From contig CAJWQD010000001.1 of the NCBI GenBank assembly GCA_913045135.1, forward strand, positions 62,001 to 126,000: 64,000 nucleotides of DNA. Reading direction: 5' to 3'. Below are positions 1 to 10,161 of the stretch, piece after piece. Every line of letters begins with the position of its first letter. The stretch's first letter is position 1. The DNA is from an uncultured Flammeovirgaceae bacterium (GTDB lineage Bacteria; Bacteroidota; Bacteroidia; Cytophagales; Cyclobacteriaceae). Under the pieces are notes generated by a model that worked only from the letters and a program-made list of their open reading frames with translations, was not told the origin of the DNA and ran no database searches. A program made the translations under genes and the position numbers.

Positions 1-683
1 CTGAGGTTTCCTGTAATTGTATTTTTAGGAAGAACCTCAAATCCATGACTCCGTAATTCCCGACGCATCATATCTCTCTGAATAATCAAGTCTTTTCCTA
101 CTTCAGCTAGATAAACAGTCTTTTCTCGTTTATTGATAATTTTCCCTTCATTTTTTTTTGATTTTAAAGACAAATATTTTGAAATATCAAAAGATAAATC
201 AATTAACTTCATCCAATAATTTTTTTCTGCCTCTGATCCAAAAAATCGATTTATTTCTCTCGGCATACCTGTCACGTTATCAATTTCATACAATTGATAA
301 TTATTTAAGTTCAATAATTCTGGAAAATTTTGAAAATTAAAAACTGTTTTGTGGACTACTAAGCATCTCTCTACTTCATCTTCAAACCCTTTTTGGGACG
401 AGATCATTTGCTTTATCCATGAAGAAATCATCTTATATCCTTTATTTTCAACCGTCAGAATAGGGCTTACCACCAATACCACGATAACATTTTTTTTTAA
501 CTCGCTTTTTTTAAGCTGACTTAAGCTACATGATTCAAGTAAAAGATCTTGATAATTCATATGCAGCAACAAAGAGGAGAGGAATTTAAAAAAATTAGTC
601 ACCCAACCCTTATCATCACCTTGAATTGCTAAATCATCTTCCTCTGAATGAACAATTAATATCTTTTCTATAGTATTCATCAT
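1..683 (-). CDS. TIR-like protein, N-terminal part (runs off the left edge of the window)
   Basis: Reverse strand is open from ATG at 683 to position 1 (227 codons, checked line by line, no stop). Reads MMNTIEKILIVHSEEDDLAIQGDDKGWVTNFFKFL...NVIVVLVVSPILT...KTVYLAEVGKDLIIQRDMMRRELRSHGFEVLPKNTITGN. The last stretch resembles the 'VYLAxxxxDLxxxRxxLxRELxxxGxxVLP' start of bacterial TIR-like domains. Not in the ORF track because it has no stop inside the window. Confidence 0.65.
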   Translation of the reverse strand, partial: MMNTIEKILIVHSEEDDLAIQGDDKGWVTNFFKFLSSLLLHMNYQDLLLESCSLSQLKKSELKKNVIVVLVVSPILTVENKGYKMISSWIKQMISSQKGFEDEVERCLVVHKTVFNFQNFPELLNLNNYQLYEIDNVTGMPREINRFFGSEAEKNYWMKLIDLSFDISKYLSLKSKKNEGKIINKREKTVYLAEVGKDLIIQRDMMRRELRSHGFEVLPKNTITGNL

Positions 684-705
684 TTAATTACAACTCGAGG
701 CAACA

Positions 706-3700
706 CTAATTAAATACACTGACATTCTCGTCTAATATACTCAAATCGAATGGATCTATTGAATCAGATTTTACAGATGTATCTATCAAATCAAGGAAAG
801 CTCTTAATATCTCACTATGAAGTGTCATCAAATCAAAAATTTCTTCTTTTGGTAAAATAAAGAAAGAGGTCTCCTCTTGAGCCACTGCTTGATAATTATA
901 CCTCTCAGAAAAGAGAATTACTTCTTCTCCCATAATATCTTTAGAACCCAATGACTTGAATACCGCACCTGACCGAATCAGATCAATCTTCCCCTCGATG
1001 ATCACGAATAAAGGTTGATCTACGCTGTCCCCTTCATTAATGAGTATAGTACCCTTATCGACCTTTTTTTGATTCATCGTATCTACCATTCTCGTAATAT
1101 TATCTCCTGGAATAGCTGCAAAACTTGGTATAGATTTTATAAACCTAACCCTATCAACCAATAACATTTTTCGATAATTTTCTTCTTCTTTATAGGCAAA
1201 AACAGGAGGTAAAATGATCTCATCTAATCTTAATTTAGAGTATGATTTAATCCTCTTTGTATGCGTTTGATAGGCCTTAGGCTCCATTTGATAGATAGAA
1301 TTTGCAGCACTTTGTAATAACAATACATCTGGATTAAATAAATTGGCAATTAAGGAATTGGAGACACGGGCATCAGGAAGTTGATGAAGCCTATTTATAG
1401 CTAAGGATTTTGTGTATCGTGTGATCCGATTAAAATCTCTATTAACGATTTGGGTAAGTAAATCCGAATAAGATTCAAAATGTTCGGGAGGAAAGAAATT
1501 CAATAATAATTCTAATCGCTCCTTATCCGTTATATCATCCAAAACAGGTAATAACATAGGCTTAATTTCGTCTTCTACAAAAACATCCAACATCTCAATA
1601 GCAAAAGTTACTGAATCCATTGAGCCATGGGTTAAGTTCTCCTTGACCAACTGCACATTATGTACGTCATAGATCATACCCAAAAGAATAAATAAATTAT
1701 TCAAGTTCACAACATTCTCCTCTCTTAATGCTCTTAGTAATTCGACGTCCAAAGGGTCAATTGGGTCTACTTGGGGGATATCTTGAATCGCTTTTATATT
1801 CCAAGCGATATCACATAAAAGATTTTCAATAATTAATTTAATCCGTGCCGACTGGAAATCTTTTGATTCAAAACCCAAGGTATTTAAAGATTTTAACAAC
1901 TCAGAGAGGACTTGCTTATCAGGAAATTCAATTTTTTTCCAAAGTAATTCTTTGGCTTGTTTTCCCCCAATAATTCCAAATAATTGAACCACTCTTACCA
2001 TCGTGGCTGTATGCTGGCCCGTTTTAAAAAAAGCAGCATCTGCAGAATGAAATACCCGATCACCCAAATAAATTAAGGCAGACATGGCTGTGTTACTATA
2101 GGTCGGAATATGTAGGTGATCGAGTATCGCCGCAAACATTTCAGGACGTTGTAACTTTCCCATAGACAAAAGTGCTGCAATACGAACCTCCGGATTAATA
2201 TCTCTCAATAGCTCCACTAAGTAAGGCAAATGCTTATCTTCCTCTAATCTAACCAAGAGTCTTGCTCCATACACTCTGTCTTGTTGTCTGGTCGATCGTG
2301 TATAAAGTCTTATAGACTCATCGTTCAACTCATAAGCCTGGAATTTCTGTAAAACTTTAATCGCTTTTCTTGCCATAAGCAACACTGATTTATTTTGCTC
2401 TTTTTTGGATTCTTGCTTTATAATTTCTAAAGTTTCATAAGCTTTGATCTCAGCCAACTTTGAATAAGCATAACTTCTAACATCCACACTAGATGAGGGC
2501 AACTGATCTAAAAGTGCAAAGGTTAATTTAATGGGATCTAACTGCTCGTATAATCGAAGGGCATTAAGTACCCTTATTTCATTTTCACTTTTAAGTTCAT
2601 TATTCAGTACTCTTAAGGCACTAAATTCATTAGTTTTTCCCTTATCTGCGATAAGATCTCTTTGACTTATCAATGTTTCCTTGAGTTTAATCTGATATTG
2701 ATTGTACAACTTTACAGACAAGTAAATAACACCAAGAGCAATAGCTATAATTAAATAAATAAAATGAATCAACTTCACAAAAACCAAACCAGCAACCAAA
2801 ATTTGTAATCCCCCAGCAAGAAAAGTCGCCAATTGTCCAATAACACCTTCTATCTTATTTTGAATATCAAATCTTATAGTTAAATTGAATGGTAAGAAAA
2901 ATAGTTTGAAAGCGGGTGATTCCAAGGCATCTCGCAATGAAGCTGTGAATGCCTTCCCACTGATAATAAACATGAAGAAAAATAAAAAATCTTCATTAAG
3001 TATCTCATAGCCAAAAAAATGGCCCGAAATAAGGCCTCCTATCATGAATAATATCAGAATAATTGGCATTGTCATCAAGGCCACTTTCAAGCCAAATCGA
3101 TTTAAAATAATATCATTAATAAAAGTTTGAATAATGAAGCTCATGATAATCACGGTCCCATTAAAAAATGACAAAAATCGATTTAATTTATCCTCTTCAG
3201 GATGATAAATTTCTATGGTTGCCAAAAAACTATATTCTACAAAAATTGCAGTCCCCATTGAGCAAACTATAAAAATTGATAATAAACGGGTGTAATCATT
3301 TTTGAAAATACCTAAGTAGCTTGTATTTTCTATATTTTCATCTTTTTTCAATGAATCAATAAGATCTACGTTATAATTTTTACAAATCAAAACAGTCAAC
3401 CATAGTATAATGATCATTGCAAAGCATGATATTAGAAGTAAATCATAAGTGTCATCTACAAAAGGGAGTTCTATTAAAAGGGGTATTGAGAAAAAGGCAA
3501 CAATAGTGGCAACTAATTGACCTGTATCTACACTTCCAATCAATCTTTTTGTTTGCCGAGTATCAAAAATTCTTCCAAATAATCCCCAAAAACCCAGAAG
3601 TAAAATGGAGGTCATTGGACCCATCATTACAAAAAGCAAAAAGGGTAATAAAGAAAATCCAGACTCTTTATCTCCCACCTCAAAAAACTCGAAAGCGAGC

Positions 3701-3996
3701 CTTAAACCACATACAAACAATGTGATAACAGCAGCGTTTCCGATGACTAACTGAGAAAATCTAACTTTTTTTTGAAGGTATACATAGGCTACCGAAGAAA
3801 TTATACCCAAAGCTCCAGTTATAAAGAAAGACTCAGCGAGATATTCCTCACCTAAAGATTGGATAAATAAAGATTCGGTGCCTACTTGATAACTCGCAAG
3901 GAAAAAACCCATAAAAGCGCCGACTCCAAGCAAAAACCACATTTGCCTTTCTTCACCATCTACCGCCCCAAGAAATTTTAGAAATTTGTTTAACAC
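706..3996 (-). CDS. Nucleotide-transporter/MFS-like membrane protein with HEAT repeats and C-terminal cyclic-nucleotide-binding domain
   Basis: 1096 aa, GTG start. About 12 hydrophobic segments in the N-terminal ~430 aa, then HEAT-like helical repeats (PEVRIAALLSMGKL), then a cNMP-binding-like module (GTILINEGDSVDQPLFVIIEGKIDLIRSGAVFKSLGSKDIMGEEVILFSERYNYQAVAQEETSFFILPKEE). Confidence 0.75.
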   Translation of the reverse strand: MLNKFLKFLGAVDGEERQMWFLLGVGAFMGFFLASYQVGTESLFIQSLGEEYLAESFFITGALGIISSVAYVYLQKKVRFSQLVIGNAAVITLFVCGLRLAFEFFEVGDKESGFSLLPFLLFVMMGPMTSILLLGFWGLFGRIFDTRQTKRLIGSVDTGQLVATIVAFFSIPLLIELPFVDDTYDLLLISCFAMIIILWLTVLICKNYNVDLIDSLKKDENIENTSYLGIFKNDYTRLLSIFIVCSMGTAIFVEYSFLATIEIYHPEEDKLNRFLSFFNGTVIIMSFIIQTFINDIILNRFGLKVALMTMPIILILFMIGGLISGHFFGYEILNEDFLFFFMFIISGKAFTASLRDALESPAFKLFFLPFNLTIRFDIQNKIEGVIGQLATFLAGGLQILVAGLVFVKLIHFIYLIIAIALGVIYLSVKLYNQYQIKLKETLISQRDLIADKGKTNEFSALRVLNNELKSENEIRVLNALRLYEQLDPIKLTFALLDQLPSSSVDVRSYAYSKLAEIKAYETLEIIKQESKKEQNKSVLLMARKAIKVLQKFQAYELNDESIRLYTRSTRQQDRVYGARLLVRLEEDKHLPYLVELLRDINPEVRIAALLSMGKLQRPEMFAAILDHLHIPTYSNTAMSALIYLGDRVFHSADAAFFKTGQHTATMVRVVQLFGIIGGKQAKELLWKKIEFPDKQVLSELLKSLNTLGFESKDFQSARIKLIIENLLCDIAWNIKAIQDIPQVDPIDPLDVELLRALREENVVNLNNLFILLGMIYDVHNVQLVKENLTHGSMDSVTFAIEMLDVFVEDEIKPMLLPVLDDITDKERLELLLNFFPPEHFESYSDLLTQIVNRDFNRITRYTKSLAINRLHQLPDARVSNSLIANLFNPDVLLLQSAANSIYQMEPKAYQTHTKRIKSYSKLRLDEIILPPVFAYKEEENYRKMLLVDRVRFIKSIPSFAAIPGDNITRMVDTMNQKKVDKGTILINEGDSVDQPLFVIIEGKIDLIRSGAVFKSLGSKDIMGEEVILFSERYNYQAVAQEETSFFILPKEEIFDLMTLHSEILRAFLDLIDTSVKSDSIDPFDLSILDENVSVFN

Positions 3997-4132: not shown

Positions 4133-4930
4133 TTATCGAATTTTACGTTTTTTTGGTTTAATTGAACTACTACCTTTTCTTTTAAGTTGAGAATTATAAA
4201 AAAGCAGATACCCTACTGATACTGTGAGTGAATGATTGCGGTATTCAAAGTTCTCGTAATAAGAAAGCATATTTTCAAAATCACTACTCACCCCATTTAA
4301 ACCTAAATGAGAATGCGAGTAATTATACCTTAATTCAAAGAGCATCCGATCTCCTCCAAAAACATCCATGTAAAATCCAGCACCTGCGGACAAGCCATAT
4401 TGCAACCTGTTGGCATCTACAATTGATTTTTGGTTTTGTAAGGAATTGGCTTCATTAAACACAACCGTATAATCTATTGACTCACCCCCTGTATTATTAC
4501 CAATATCGGTTGTATACATAGTTCCAGAAGCTGCCAACCAATAGTTCAGTTTAATTCCGGCATTAGCGTAAAATGATAACGGAGAATTCGGAAAATTGAC
4601 TTGTAAAAGAATAGGAGTTGTTAAATAATGTGAAATAAAGATACTTGAAGCGGAATCCGACATGTTGGGTATATTAGTTAGTGCTCTTGATCTTCGCTCA
4701 TAATTTAATTCAGAGGTGACAGAAAATCTTTTTGAGGCAACATAAGTCATGATTGCACCAAAATGAAAATTATATCCATTATCTATGTTAAAACTATCTG
4801 TATAGGTTGCGTAGCGGTAATCGTGCATGATTAAGGAAGGGCCTCCTTTTATACCCATCCAATATTGAGCTTGAGCAATATTGGAAGTGACGCTTAATAC
4901 GAAAAATAAAAGAAAATGATGAAATTTCAT
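4133..4930 (-). CDS. Outer-membrane beta-barrel protein (PorT-like), secreted
   Basis: 265 aa with signal peptide MKFHHFLLFFVLSVTSNIAQAQ; GxKGGPSL start, alternating amphipathic strands, 'LQYGLSAGAGFYMDVFGGDRMLFELRYNYS' typical of Bacteroidota OM barrels. Confidence 0.65.
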   Translation of the reverse strand: MKFHHFLLFFVLSVTSNIAQAQYWMGIKGGPSLIMHDYRYATYTDSFNIDNGYNFHFGAIMTYVASKRFSVTSELNYERRSRALTNIPNMSDSASSIFISHYLTTPILLQVNFPNSPLSFYANAGIKLNYWLAASGTMYTTDIGNNTGGESIDYTVVFNEANSLQNQKSIVDANRLQYGLSAGAGFYMDVFGGDRMLFELRYNYSHSHLGLNGVSSDFENMLSYYENFEYRNHSLTVSVGYLLFYNSQLKRKGSSSIKPKKRKIR

Positions 4931-4956: not shown

Positions 4957-5128
4957 CAAAGAAATATGTATTTTTTTTTCAAAAAAACTAAGTTTGGTCC
5001 TCTTGCTTAAAAAAAAAAAAAAAATGATTACTTGACTCTTATTTGATAATTTTCTCTTTTTATTCTAAAAAATATTCTACATTTTTGGTCAACCTAAACA
5101 TTTGCAACCAAATGAATTCTCAGCTGAC

Positions 5129-6832
5129 ATGAAAAAAATACATTTACTGATTTTAGTACTTTGTTCTTTTTCTGTTTTTGCTCAACAACCAATCGTTTTT
5201 AATCAATTTTACATGAATCCTTATCTCTACAACCCTGCCTATGCTGGCGTTGAAGGGCACTCCGTCTTTTATGGTCTTTATCAGCAACAATGGTCGGGTA
5301 TAAACGGTGCTCCCACTACCATGCATGGTAGCTTTCATGCGCCATTACCAGGAGGTATAGGTATTGGATTTTCTGGTTACAATATTGAGGAAGGTGGGAT
5401 ATTAAGTACTACTGCCGGAAAAGCATCTATTTCCTATCTTCTGACCATGGATTTAAAACATAATTTAAGATTTGGCTTATCTTTTGGAGGAGGTAGCCAA
5501 ATTTTAAATTTTGGTGAATTAGATGATCCCTTTGATCCTGCATATGCGAACATCGCCAGTAACAGTACCTTTGCACTTGCTGATTTTGGTCTAACATATC
5601 ATGCAGGTCATTTTAATTTCGGATTTTCAATACCCAATTTGATTAGCTATGACAAATTTGTTGATAATGACAGTTCAAATCCAATAAGAGTTAAGCCACT
5701 AGATAATGTAATGCTTCAAACCTTTTTTCGAGGTCACCTATCGGATAATATCGCCATAGAGCCTCATGTAGTCTACCGATACAATAATTTTGGTACCAGC
5801 CAACTCGAAGGAACACTCCTTCTTCACCTATTCCATGTTATTTGGGTCAGTGGTACTTACAGAGAGGACATGAACATCGTTGGAACAGCTGGAGTAAAGT
5901 TGAAGGGAAAATTTGGTCTTGGTTACAGTTATGAAACCGGTAATTTAAATATTATGAATGATTTAGGGCCCTCTCATGAAATACATTTGGGCATTCACCT
6001 AGGTAAAAGAAAACCTCATGCAAAGCATACCTCATCATTCATTAACTCTAAAAGGCCAGAAAAAGAGGAAGAAGAGGAAGAACAAGTTGATACAGTCGTA
6101 ATAGAAAAAATAGACACAGTAATCATTGATAAAACAGATACCTTAGAATTAGATAAGCCATGGCAATTAGATGAAACGCGAGGAGAGGTTTTAAAAACAA
6201 GTGAAAATGGCCAAGAACAAAAGGCAATAGTAGTACAACATACATCAAAAGAGGGTACTATCGAGGAGGCAATTACTTGGGTTCCTACCGATGAATCATG
6301 GGAAATGATTGAGGATCGGACAAAAGAAACCCGAACCAATTCAGAGGGCAAAACTGAAATTGGTGTACAATATGTTAAAACAGACAAAGAAGGAAAATCA
6401 GACTCCTTAATTATCTGGGAACCTACTATGAGTAAAGAGGCCATAGATTCAATCATTGATAGAGCCACAATAAAACCAGAAGTTGAGGAAGAACCGATTA
6501 AGGAGATCCCTGAAGAAATAACATCTGATGAACTAATACAAGAAGTTGAGGAAGTTGTAAAAGGAAATCATTTATTAGAATTACCTGAAGGTGTATATCT
6601 CATCGCCGGCGTATTTGAATATTATGAAAACGCAAACAAATTCAGTGACCAATTATTCTTTAAGGGATATCACGAGGCACTAGTTGGTTTTGTAAGTGAA
6701 AAAGGATACTACTATGTTGTTATATACAGATCTGATAGTTTAGCTGAGGTAAAGGCTAAACTAATTCGGGAAAACAAAAAGAAAAATATGAATGAAATAT
6801 GGATTAAAATACTAAAAGTGAACAGCGAATGA
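5129..6832 (+). CDS. PorP/SprF family T9SS membrane protein with C-terminal SPOR-like domain
   Basis: ORF track starts at TTG 5102; ATG 5129 gives signal peptide MKKIHLLILVLCSFSVFAQQ, then 'PIVFNQFYMNPYLYNPAYAGVEGHSVFYGLYQQQWSGINGAPTTMHGSFHAPL', diagnostic of PorP/SprF. C-terminus 'EGVYLIAGVFEYYENANKFSDQLFFKGYHEALVGFVSEKGYYYVVIYRSDSLAEVKAKL' is SPOR-like. Confidence 0.85.
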   Translation: MKKIHLLILVLCSFSVFAQQPIVFNQFYMNPYLYNPAYAGVEGHSVFYGLYQQQWSGINGAPTTMHGSFHAPLPGGIGIGFSGYNIEEGGILSTTAGKASISYLLTMDLKHNLRFGLSFGGGSQILNFGELDDPFDPAYANIASNSTFALADFGLTYHAGHFNFGFSIPNLISYDKFVDNDSSNPIRVKPLDNVMLQTFFRGHLSDNIAIEPHVVYRYNNFGTSQLEGTLLLHLFHVIWVSGTYREDMNIVGTAGVKLKGKFGLGYSYETGNLNIMNDLGPSHEIHLGIHLGKRKPHAKHTSSFINSKRPEKEEEEEEQVDTVVIEKIDTVIIDKTDTLELDKPWQLDETRGEVLKTSENGQEQKAIVVQHTSKEGTIEEAITWVPTDESWEMIEDRTKETRTNSEGKTEIGVQYVKTDKEGKSDSLIIWEPTMSKEAIDSIIDRATIKPEVEEEPIKEIPEEITSDELIQEVEEVVKGNHLLELPEGVYLIAGVFEYYENANKFSDQLFFKGYHEALVGFVSEKGYYYVVIYRSDSLAEVKAKLIRENKKKNMNEIWIKILKVNSE

Positions 6833-9800
6833 TGAGAATATTCAGTGTTTTTAGTTTGTTTTTTATTATCTCTAGCCATGCTGTTGGACAAACCGTACCC
6901 TACATTAGTTCAGTTAGTCCGCTTTCAGCGACTCCAACAGAGATTGTTACCATTTCGGGATCCTCCCTTAATGGAAGTGAAGTCTTTTTCGGTACGGTAA
7001 AAGGAAACATTATATCCAATTCTGATGGGCTCATAGAGGTAGAAGTGCCTTCTGGTGCGAGTTATGGACCAGTATCCGTTCATAACAATAATGGGGTTGC
7101 TGTATCGTCCTCATATTTTCTACCCAATTGGGGTGGCAATATATCGAATACAACTGACTACCCCTTCAACGCAGTTAATAGCATAGCCGTAGGAGAACAA
7201 TACATTTATGATCTCTGTCTTTGTGATTTCGATGATGATGGAAAAAATGACTTTGTAGTTGCCTCAAAAGAAAATCTAGATGCTGCCTTTGCCAGTCGGG
7301 TAGTATATCGTAATACAACGGCTACTCCGGGAGCTACACCCTCTTTCACAAAATCACTTAGTCTTGGAGCTCAACCCGCATTTCACGTAGATTGTGGAGA
7401 TCTTGATGGAGATGGAAAGCCCGATCTAGTTGTAACACAAAGCGCTGAGGGTTCTGAGGCCAGAAATGTTGAAGTTTATTTGAACACTTCTTCACCAGGA
7501 AATATTAGTTTCGATATTAATAACATCCTTGAACTCATCTTAAACAGAAGAGATACATTAATTCGTCCACCAGCCGAAATTGCAATTGATGATTTAAATC
7601 AAGATGGAAAGCTAGATCTTGTGATTTCAAACGATCAATATAATGATATAGATATCTTTAAAAATACAAGTACGCAAGGGGCGTTAAGCTTTGAGAATCC
7701 CATTCTTCTAAATTTTACTCAATTATCAGCAGGAGAAGCAGCTCGAGGATTAAAAATTGCAGATCTCAATAACGATGATTTACCCGAAGTTATAGTAAGT
7801 TCTTTTGGGAAGTCTGACGTATTTTATTTTAACAATATAAGCACTGCTGATGCAATAAATTTTAATGAAGAAATACGCTTAATTTCAACAGAAGCTGATC
7901 AAATTCAAGCCATTGAAGTTGCAGATTTAGACAGTGATGGTTTCATGGAGATTATTGCCTCAGACGGAACTACGAATCTCGGTGAACTAATCATATTTCC
8001 GAATAATACGATAGAAGCTGGATCGGAAATAGTTATTGGTAGTCGATTAGAGTTTGAATCTAAACTATTCCCTTTCGGTCTTTCAGTAGGTGATATTAAT
8101 GGAGATGGTAAAGTAGATATTGCTATGGGTATCTTAGAAGCAGGTGAAACTAATATTGACCTTTTTTTGAATTCATCATCGGCTGAGGGATCCTTTACCT
8201 TTGAAAACCAAAGCTTGGATATGGGTCTCATAAATAATAGAAATTTAGAGATAGGGGATCTGAATATGGATGGAAAGCCAGATATTGCTGTTGTTTCAAA
8301 AAGCTCTATTGGTACCTTAAGTGAAATCTCCATTGCCGACAATGCTGGTTGTTTAACTCCTGTGATAAATCCTGTAAACTCTAGTTATTGTACAGGTGTG
8401 GAATTCTTCGTAACTGCGAGTCCAGCTACAGGCACCGTTTTTAATTGGGAGGTAAGTACGAATAATGGCACCAGTTTTTCACCAGACGCGAGCTCCACCT
8501 CAAACAGTCTAGATATTAGCGGATATAATGGTGACCTACAGGTAAGGGTTACTGCAGCCATTGGTGCCTGCAGTAAACTCTCGGAAATAGTAAATGTAGG
8601 CAGTAGTAATTCTGGAGATCCAGGGACGCCAAATATTGTTGTGACACCAACAACTGTTTGCTTAGGCAGTGACTTTGCTTTGAGCTCGAGTATTGTTGCC
8701 GATAATTACATTTGGAGTGGGCCAAATGACTTTAGCTCGACGGATGCCGCACCAAGCTTTGAAAACGCAAATTCTGTACTTGCAGGAACTTACTATTTGA
8801 CTATTGCTAATACTGGTGGATGCAGTGGTCAAACAACAAGTAAAATAATAGAAATAGACTTAGGACCTCCCAGTACAATTGTAAATAATGGAAACGATAA
8901 TTTCTGTGAGGGACTCACCACGGAGCTAGCAATATCTACATATGATGGGTTCACTTACCAATGGAATCTAAATGGTACTCCCATAAATGGAGCAACAGCA
9001 GGAACTTACCAAGCAAATACTACAGGAACTTATTCTGTATCGACTACAGAAACAGCAACGAGCTGTGTGGCTACAGGAAAAACTTATTCTGTTACGCAAA
9101 TAGCCAAACCTATATTTAATATCGATGGTGTCTCAGCAACTTGTGTAGATTTAAATCGAATATTTGAAGCTAGCGTTGATAGTACTAATACTACTTTTAC
9201 GAATACTTATTCATGGAGCTATGCTAATAGCGCAGGCACAACAACTGACAGTACCAGTCTAGCCACAACTGATACTTTAAGCTTTTCTCAAGCAGGTAAT
9301 TACGTTGTTAAACTAACTACTGGCTATGAGGAAATTATTAACTGTGAAAGCTCTACCACCAAAGCGGTAGTGGTGACAACAGTTCCAACTTTTACCATTG
9401 ACACACCAGAAGGTATTGAAAAATGTCCTAGTGATAGCCTTCTTTTAGAATTACCCAATAACCTTGCAAGTTATCTTTGGAGCGACAGCAGTACAAATTA
9501 TAACACTTATGGACAAATTGACCGTTACAATGATTCTAATCCAAAAGTTTATACTGTGACATGGACTGATTCTGCAGGTTGTTCAGACACTTCTTCGGTG
9601 ACCATCAACAACTATTATGATTCGAATATTGAGATCACCTCGAGTTTAGGTGATATTATTGAAGGTACACTAACAGTTCCAGAACCAACTGGATTTTTAA
9701 CTGCTATCCCTCTTACCGCCTCGGGTGGATCGAATTATTTATGGGGACCAACCAATATTGTTAGCGATACTAGCGCTACTGATGTGAAAATCTACCCTAA

Positions 9801-10161
9801 AACGATAAATGATGTGGTTAGCTTAACTGCATCTGATGCTAATAATTGTAATGAAACTATTACTGTCAACTTATTAATTGATTATGTTGCGCCTAGGAAA
9901 AGCTTCTCTCCCAATGGAGATGGTTTTGGATTTGATTGCTGGGAAATTCGTAATGCAGCTGATATGATTGATTGTACCATATATATTTTTAATGAGATGG
10001 GCAAGGAAATTTGGTCAGGTAGTGAGTTCGTTGATGATTGCATTTGGGATGGAAATACCTACACCAGTAGCGAAGCCCCAGAAGGCATCTATTATTATAC
10101 TATCTCTTGCGATGCCACATCTGTATTCCAACCCAGCGGTGCCATTCTTCTGGCAAGATGA
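6829..10161 (+). CDS. Secreted T9SS cargo: IPT/TIG domain, FG-GAP/VCBS repeats, Ig-like repeats, type-B T9SS C-terminal sorting domain
   Basis: 1110 aa, ATGA overlap with previous gene. Repeated Ca-binding-like motifs DFDDDGKND, DLDGDGKPD, DLNQDGKLD, DINGDGKVD, DLNMDGKPD; C-terminal 'PRKSFSPNGDGFGFDCWEIRNAADMIDCTIYIFNEMGKEIWSG...WDGNTYTSSEAPEGIYYYTISC'. Confidence 0.85.
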   Translation: MMRIFSVFSLFFIISSHAVGQTVPYISSVSPLSATPTEIVTISGSSLNGSEVFFGTVKGNIISNSDGLIEVEVPSGASYGPVSVHNNNGVAVSSSYFLPNWGGNISNTTDYPFNAVNSIAVGEQYIYDLCLCDFDDDGKNDFVVASKENLDAAFASRVVYRNTTATPGATPSFTKSLSLGAQPAFHVDCGDLDGDGKPDLVVTQSAEGSEARNVEVYLNTSSPGNISFDINNILELILNRRDTLIRPPAEIAIDDLNQDGKLDLVISNDQYNDIDIFKNTSTQGALSFENPILLNFTQLSAGEAARGLKIADLNNDDLPEVIVSSFGKSDVFYFNNISTADAINFNEEIRLISTEADQIQAIEVADLDSDGFMEIIASDGTTNLGELIIFPNNTIEAGSEIVIGSRLEFESKLFPFGLSVGDINGDGKVDIAMGILEAGETNIDLFLNSSSAEGSFTFENQSLDMGLINNRNLEIGDLNMDGKPDIAVVSKSSIGTLSEISIADNAGCLTPVINPVNSSYCTGVEFFVTASPATGTVFNWEVSTNNGTSFSPDASSTSNSLDISGYNGDLQVRVTAAIGACSKLSEIVNVGSSNSGDPGTPNIVVTPTTVCLGSDFALSSSIVADNYIWSGPNDFSSTDAAPSFENANSVLAGTYYLTIANTGGCSGQTTSKIIEIDLGPPSTIVNNGNDNFCEGLTTELAISTYDGFTYQWNLNGTPINGATAGTYQANTTGTYSVSTTETATSCVATGKTYSVTQIAKPIFNIDGVSATCVDLNRIFEASVDSTNTTFTNTYSWSYANSAGTTTDSTSLATTDTLSFSQAGNYVVKLTTGYEEIINCESSTTKAVVVTTVPTFTIDTPEGIEKCPSDSLLLELPNNLASYLWSDSSTNYNTYGQIDRYNDSNPKVYTVTWTDSAGCSDTSSVTINNYYDSNIEITSSLGDIIEGTLTVPEPTGFLTAIPLTASGGSNYLWGPTNIVSDTSATDVKIYPKTINDVVSLTASDANNCNETITVNLLIDYVAPRKSFSPNGDGFGFDCWEIRNAADMIDCTIYIFNEMGKEIWSGSEFVDDCIWDGNTYTSSEAPEGIYYYTISCDATSVFQPSGAILLAR

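What the first reader, a model, noticed from the sequence alone, without database searches (positions are those of the whole stretch)
1..3996. TIR-like protein directly downstream of a nucleotide-transporter/HEAT/cNMP-binding protein: candidate nucleotide-signalling or defence pair
Seen: two minus-strand genes 22 bp apart. The upstream protein combines a polytopic domain, HEAT repeats and a cNMP-binding-like domain; the downstream ORF is TIR-like, possibly with two TIR-fold halves (VHSEEDD... and VYLAEVGKDL...). Known: bacterial TIR domains cleave NAD and can make cyclic ADP-ribose-type signals sensed by separate effectors. Inference: the pair could be a sensor/effector module where the membrane protein responds to a nucleotide signal. 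The TIR ORF is truncated and absent from the supplied ORF track.
Basis: partly seen in the sequence, partly recalled or inferred. Interest (0 to 1): 0.6.

Follow-up and report, generated by a model that had tools for sequence, protein, structure and literature searches.

The report
Envelope-spanning STAND/TIR operon of Cytophagales
The two neighbouring genes are the first half of a widely conserved five- to six-gene operon that probably builds a signalling or anchoring complex across the whole cell envelope of Cytophagales bacteria; sister copies sit inside phage-tail-like injection-machine gene clusters, and the TIR-like part looks catalytically dead, so it is not a simple TIR defence pair.

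Summary
The gene at 706-3996 (-) is an NTT-like membrane domain fused to HEAT repeats and a cNMP-binding fold. 22 bp downstream lies an ORF whose complete form, recovered from the parent contig, is 502 aa with three TIR/flavodoxin-like domains; the middle one is DUF4062-like. The interpretation fits only partly. The pair starts a tight operon: NTT-HEAT-cNBD, triple TIR-like, nSTAND1-TM-WD40, outer-membrane barrel, lipoprotein propeller, and usually a giant T9SS-sorted surface protein. NTT-TIR-STAND order holds in 72 of 80 named loci (nearly all exceptions are contig ends) and across 12 families of the order. The catalytic Glu is missing in all three TIR-like domains of the window protein and in most relatives, and the cNMP domain lacks the phosphate-binding Arg in 25/25. 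NADase or cyclic-nucleotide signalling is therefore unlikely for this copy. Every STAND tested has one TM segment with the positive side on the NTPase, placing WD40 in the periplasm. A sister subfamily of the module sits beside or inside contractile-injection-system clusters in three families, and a more distant NTT/STAND/OMP set does so in Flammeovirga-like genomes. Best reading: a trans-envelope STAND sensing/anchoring module with a pseudo-TIR scaffold, apparently undescribed. Mechanism is inferred.

The parts
1..683 (-). triple TIR-like protein, 5' 227 codons in the window (domain 1 about 162-683; start of domain 2 at 1-119); complete 502-aa ORF is G000:C1:61175-62683
   Evidence: fold; DUF4062 in orthologues; catalytic Glu absent
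706..3996 (-). NTT-like polytopic membrane domain + HEAT repeats + degenerate cNMP-binding domain (1096 aa)
2647..3819 (-). NTT (ADP/ATP-carrier type) membrane domain, about residues 60-450
   Evidence: profile vs PDB 9j3n/9j3j, E 6e-21 and 1e-19; hydrophobic segments
2071..2295 (-). HEAT repeats (residues 568-642)
   Evidence: Pfam HEAT_2 1.4e-10
826..1068 (-). cNMP-binding fold (residues 977-1057) without the canonical phosphate-binding Arg
   Evidence: Pfam PF00027 1.4e-11; cassette alignment
4133..4930 (-). outer-membrane beta-barrel gene upstream of the operon, same strand, 136 bp away; kept next to the operon in two genus-mates; membership uncertain
   Evidence: Pfam OMP_b-brl_2 1.4e-12
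5102..6832 (+). PorP/SprF-family T9SS protein, divergent neighbour kept in two genus-mates; possible partner, not shown
   Evidence: Pfam PF11751 2.8e-53
6829..10161 (+). FG-GAP surface protein with CHU_C (T9SS) sorting domain, divergent neighbour kept in two genus-mates
   Evidence: Pfam

Best explanation
The pair is the promoter-proximal half of an operon that encodes an envelope-spanning STAND-NTPase signalling/anchoring complex. SHOWN from sequence: gene order; families; one conserved TM segment in STAND with positive-inside charge; signal peptides or lipobox on the OMP and lipoprotein; T9SS sorting tail on the sixth protein in relatives; loss of the TIR Glu and cNMP Arg; a sister copy in contractile injection system (CIS) clusters. 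INFERRED: the STAND NTPase sits in the cytoplasm with its coiled coil and WD40 propeller in the periplasm, touching the periplasmic N-terminal domain of the OM barrel and the lipoprotein. A surface event (giant T9SS protein here, the injection machine in the sister systems) is passed through them and makes STAND switch nucleotide state and oligomerise. The triple TIR-like protein acts as a non-enzymatic cytoplasmic scaffold linking the STAND ring to the HEAT/cNBD tail of the NTT-like membrane protein, whose gating or anchoring is the output.
For: Operon: gaps of 22, -4, 5 and -4 bp in the window genome. NTT-TIR-STAND contiguous in 72/80 named loci, exceptions nearly all contig ends, and in 12 families of the order. 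NTT, STAND and TIR trees give the same two subfamilies, so the genes move together. STAND: nSTAND1 1.4e-95 plus WD40, Walker A in 107/108, a TM in 100/100 near residue 507, more K/R on the N side in 100/100. OMP: barrel with conserved N-terminal domain. Lipoprotein: Cys20 invariant in 22 sequences. Sixth protein: Por_Secre_tail 1.3e-11 in a 2394-aa example, 1.5-5.2 kaa in five loci. Catalytic residues absent. Sister copies with CIS genes.
Against: No experiment; no physical interaction is shown. The window genome lacks the giant sixth gene at this spot; a divergent T9SS-sorted gene lies nearby instead. A minority of family members keep a Glu (7/37 in domain 1, 6/37 in the DUF4062-like domain), so some could be enzymes. 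The module is patchy: 42/195 genomes of the order and 5/10 of the genus. Flammeovirga-like loci have TIR-STAND-OMP without an adjacent NTT gene.
Confidence: 0.5

Rival explanations
1. CIS-derived module: the operon is the membrane anchor/firing-trigger part of a contractile injection system; the window lineage kept it after losing, or never joining, the injection machine and uses it for another surface apparatus.
For: In three families (four genera) NTT/TIR/STAND/OMP sit next to or inside clusters with sheath, tube, gp25, VgrG and tape-measure genes; in Flammeovirga-like genomes a distant NTT/STAND/OMP set is interspersed among baseplate genes. NTT, STAND and TIR trees all separate a mostly CIS-linked clade from the window clade.
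Against: No CIS tape-measure gene in the window genome (81.7% complete). About 100 window-clade loci carry no CIS gene in the fetched flanks apart from one weak hit. The direction of change is not known.
Confidence: 0.2
2. T9SS/gliding accessory: the operon helps secrete, anchor or read out giant T9SS-sorted surface proteins.
For: The sixth gene in relatives is a giant protein with a Por_Secre_tail-type end; in the window genus PorP/SprF plus CHU_C protein genes lie divergently beside the operon; the OMP has a weak PorG match (E 0.0013).
Against: The sister subfamily pairs with CIS instead; the PorG match is far below cut-off; T9SS-sorted proteins are abundant in this order, so proximity is weak evidence.
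Confidence: 0.15
3. TIR/STAND antiphage defence (Swarozyc-, Avs- or Pycsar-like): infection is sensed, TIR depletes NAD or makes a signal sensed by the cNMP domain.
For: DUF4062 is reported as a TIR-like NADase used in antiphage defence (PMC13174449); STAND NTPases are common in defence; patchy distribution; some members keep a Glu.
Against: Catalytic Glu missing in the window protein and most relatives; cNMP Arg missing; no convincing PADLOC model for the TIR protein; OM barrel, OM lipoprotein and secreted giant protein do not fit cytoplasmic defence; fixed chromosomal location within a family.
Confidence: 0.1

Closest known systems
NTT-HEAT-cNBD fusion proteins (Major et al. 2017, PMC5381601)
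   Same: Same three-domain order; that paper describes the NTT-HEAT(-cNBD) fusion as monophyletic, broadly distributed and uncharacterised.
   Different: That paper's text has no TIR mention; here the gene belongs to an operon, and its cNBD lacks the phosphate-binding Arg.
DUF4062 TIR-like NADases: Swarozyc and TEP1/NWD1/NPHP3 (PMC13174449, preprint)
   Same: DUF4062 fold in the middle domain; TEP1/NWD1-type proteins join DUF4062 to a STAND ATPase and WD40, as here across two genes.
   Different: Gln replaces the catalytic Glu in 31/37; TIR array and STAND are separate proteins; STAND spans the membrane; OM partners present.
nSTAND1-WD40 proteins (Pfam PF20703)
   Same: E 1.4e-95, Walker A intact.
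   Different: Fixed partner set of NTT, TIR array, OMP and lipoprotein.
Contractile injection systems (e.g. AlgoCIS PMC8894135, BIS PMC7394362, thylakoid-anchored CIS PMC8894136)
   Same: Sister copies of the module lie in Cytophagales CIS clusters.
   Different: Keyword searches in AlgoCIS, BIS, tCIS and the eCIS survey found no mention of WD40 proteins or of such a module; the window locus has no CIS genes.
Pycsar PycTIR effectors
   Same: cNMP-binding fold plus TIR-type fold in one system; the cNBD profile matches PycTIR and PADLOC PycTIR by its cNBD only.
   Different: Separate proteins, no cyclase in the operon, both key residues missing.

Membership tests
Catalytic TIR / DUF4062 NADase | TIR-type alpha/beta fold | tested here: met
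   AlphaFold pLDDT 80-82; Foldseek TIR hits prob 0.97-1.0, target TM 0.51-0.60, alongside flavodoxins; DUF4062 over cut-off in orthologues
Catalytic TIR / DUF4062 NADase | catalytic Glu | tested here: not met
   domain 1: Met in window, Glu in 7/37; DUF4062-like domain: Gln in window and 31/37; no Glu in the aligned W..K motif of domain 3
Catalytic TIR / DUF4062 NADase | NAD cleavage | not testable with these tools
   needs an assay
Canonical cyclic-nucleotide-binding domain | Pfam cNMP_binding fold | tested here: met
   1.4e-11
Canonical cyclic-nucleotide-binding domain | phosphate-cassette Arg (G-E...R-A) | tested here: not met
   absent in 25/25
NTT nucleotide transporters | homology to ADP,ATP carriers | tested here: met
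   profile E 6e-21
NTT nucleotide transporters | Pfam TLC hit and nucleotide-contacting residues | tested here: inconclusive
   no TLC hit at E<1; the carriers' VEVTWKSK stretch aligns to VEYSFLS-type sequence; role of each residue not tested
STAND NTPase (nSTAND1-WD40) | nSTAND1 domain, Walker A, WD40 repeats | tested here: met
Contractile injection system | sheath, tube, baseplate, tape measure at the locus | tested here: not met
   own genome negative for tape measure; about 100 window-clade loci essentially negative; sister subfamily positive
Known antiphage defence system | PADLOC model match of signature proteins | tested here: not met

The most novel reading that the evidence does not exclude
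A previously unrecognised trans-envelope signalling machine in Cytophagales: a membrane-anchored STAND NTPase with a periplasmic WD40 propeller, a pseudo-TIR scaffold and an NTT-derived membrane subunit. It forms one module used in two settings, as the anchor or trigger of contractile injection systems and as reader or anchor of giant T9SS surface proteins.
Probability: 0.35. Interest if true: 0.85.

Novelty: new variant of a known kind. Interest (0 to 1): 0.6.

Why it matters
It gives the uncharacterised NTT-HEAT-cNBD proteins a testable operon partner set. It shows a TIR/DUF4062 family that has mostly lost its catalytic Glu but stays tied to a STAND NTPase, parallel to adaptor TIRs and to TEP1/NWD1 architectures. 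It also points to candidate membrane-anchor or trigger genes for Cytophagales contractile injection systems.

Tried and rejected
Viral-contig search with the TIR protein: nothing. Defence reading rejected for this copy. Pfam near-hits Dbr1_C, NapE and GCR1_C and the phmmer hits to NSA2 and kinesin are sub-threshold noise. Whole-protein Foldseek tops (acyl-CoA synthetases) are tandem Rossmann-type matches with TM 0.28 and were not used. rpoB against operon trees agree mainly at family level: 12 of 22 splits, Spearman 0.45; the window copy groups with small genomes of other families, so some lateral transfer or fast evolution cannot be excluded. Keyword searches for a published description of the operon found none (open-access papers only).

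Full report
OBSERVATION. The window lies at G000:C1:62001-126000. Reading left of it completes the second ORF to 502 aa. It is followed, on the same strand and with gaps of -4, 5 and -4 bp, by a 1106-aa nSTAND1-WD40 protein (nSTAND1 E 1.4e-95), a 385-aa protein that in homologues is an outer-membrane beta-barrel, and a 450-aa lipoprotein. So the pair is the first part of an operon of at least five genes.

CONSERVATION. The TIR-like protein was found in 42 of 195 sampled genomes of the order, and hardly outside it in a phylum sample. In the fetched loci the order NTT / TIR / STAND / OMP / lipoprotein recurs across 12 family labels. A search of public genomes gave 80 named loci, mostly titled as Cytophagales lineages (Ohtaekwangia, Chryseolinea, Fulvivirga and many MAGs). 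In 72 of them TIR is flanked directly by NTT and STAND, and nearly all the rest end at a contig edge. Many loci of one family share the same upstream chromosomal neighbours, two arrangements covering 55 of 61 loci. A sixth gene usually follows: a secreted protein of roughly 1,500 to 5,200 residues in five complete examples, with a T9SS sorting domain in the one scanned. Within the window's genus 5 of 10 genomes carry the operon; there the giant gene is missing and a divergent PorP/SprF plus CHU_C pair lies next door.

DOMAINS. (a) NTT-HEAT-cNBD: the membrane part matches solved ADP,ATP carriers (E 6e-21) and the C-terminus matches cNMP_binding, but the phosphate-cassette Arg is absent in all 25 members aligned. 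(b) TIR-like protein: AlphaFold shows three alpha/beta domains (about 1-173, 188-341, 352-480 in the Ohtaekwangia protein; mean pLDDT 80). Foldseek gives SNC1 TIR (prob 1.0, target TM 0.58), MyD88 and TLR1. For the window's own fragment it gives TIRAP (prob 0.99, target TM 0.60) beside flavodoxins. The middle domain is DUF4062: several orthologues pass Pfam's cut-off, and hhalign aligns it over 149 columns (E 0.0015 for that single comparison). A 2026 preprint reports DUF4062 as a TIR-like NADase whose Glu is needed for antiphage defence (PMC13174449). Here that position is Gln in 31 of 37, and the domain-1 Glu is present in only 7 of 37, Met in the window. (c) STAND: Walker A in 107/108; a TM segment near residue 507 in 100/100; more Lys/Arg on the NTPase side in 100/100. 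By the positive-inside rule the NTPase is cytoplasmic and the coiled coil plus WD40 periplasmic.

LINK TO CONTRACTILE INJECTION. Searching for the CIS tape-measure family in the same 195 genomes and reading the loci shows a sister form of the module beside or inside CIS clusters. Four genomes of one genus (g68) have NTT and tape measure about 23.5 kb apart, with NTT-TIR-STAND-OMP running into GH18, sheath, tube, VgrG, gp25 and other baseplate genes in the one read end to end. In g43 TIR-NTT and STAND-OMP are interspersed with CIS genes. G056 has NTT-TIR-STAND-OMP-lipoprotein followed by baseplate, sheath and tube genes. G097 has tape measure 3 kb from TIR-STAND-OMP. In Flammeovirga-like g39 genomes (genus name is my inference from genome size) more distant NTT (322 bits), STAND (739 bits) and OMP (221 bits) homologues lie among baseplate genes, without TIR. 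NTT, STAND and TIR trees each put the CIS-linked sequences with TIR, plus G004b and G062b, apart from the window clade, so the module seems to have diverged as a unit. About 100 window-clade loci show no CIS gene in the fetched flanks except one weak hit, and the window genome has no tape measure (genome 81.7% complete).

MECHANISM. Best-supported reading: a trans-envelope STAND complex. Order, families, topology signals and residue losses are shown; contacts and signal flow are inferred. A surface-exposed partner (giant T9SS protein or injection machine) would act through the OM barrel and lipoprotein on the periplasmic WD40. STAND would switch and oligomerise, and the pseudo-TIR array would dock it to the HEAT/cNBD tail of the NTT-like membrane protein. 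In four loci from two family labels a gene lies between NTT and TIR; in the two scanned it is a HAMP-SpoIIE phosphatase, in keeping with a signalling role.

NOVELTY. Every part belongs to a known family; the assembly and its two contexts were not found described. Keyword searches of open-access papers and of four CIS papers gave nothing; subscription papers were not searchable. I file it as a new variant of STAND-based systems and hold a probability of 0.35 for the stronger claim.

Noticed in passing
L163, L164, L179 (G131:C2 about 1.754-1.790 Mb; G090:C1 about 1.457-1.476 Mb): Contractile injection cluster with NTT-HEAT-cNBD, nSTAND1-WD40 and OMP homologues interspersed among baseplate genes, without a TIR gene.
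   Followed up: partly
L281 (G585:C53, near 29 kb): A 711-aa protein that appears to fuse a class III nucleotide cyclase-like domain (read by eye) to the TIR-like array (82.8 bits), with an nSTAND1-like ORF next to it.
   Followed up: no
L051:6036-7985, L057:9531-11561 (similar insert in L055, L068): HAMP-SpoIIE (PP2C-type) phosphatase gene inserted between NTT and TIR.
   Followed up: partly
L153-L157: Second, TIR-less copy of NTT-STAND-OMP-lipoprotein-giant gene in genomes of the window's family.
   Followed up: partly
L158-L160: Variant in which the OMP N-terminal domain is fused to a TonB-dependent receptor barrel, with STAS-like, RsbW-like and hybrid histidine-kinase-like genes nearby.
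   Followed up: partly
window 5102-10161: PorP/SprF gene overlapping an FG-GAP protein with a CHU_C sorting domain, divergent from the operon and conserved in two genus-mates.
   Followed up: partly
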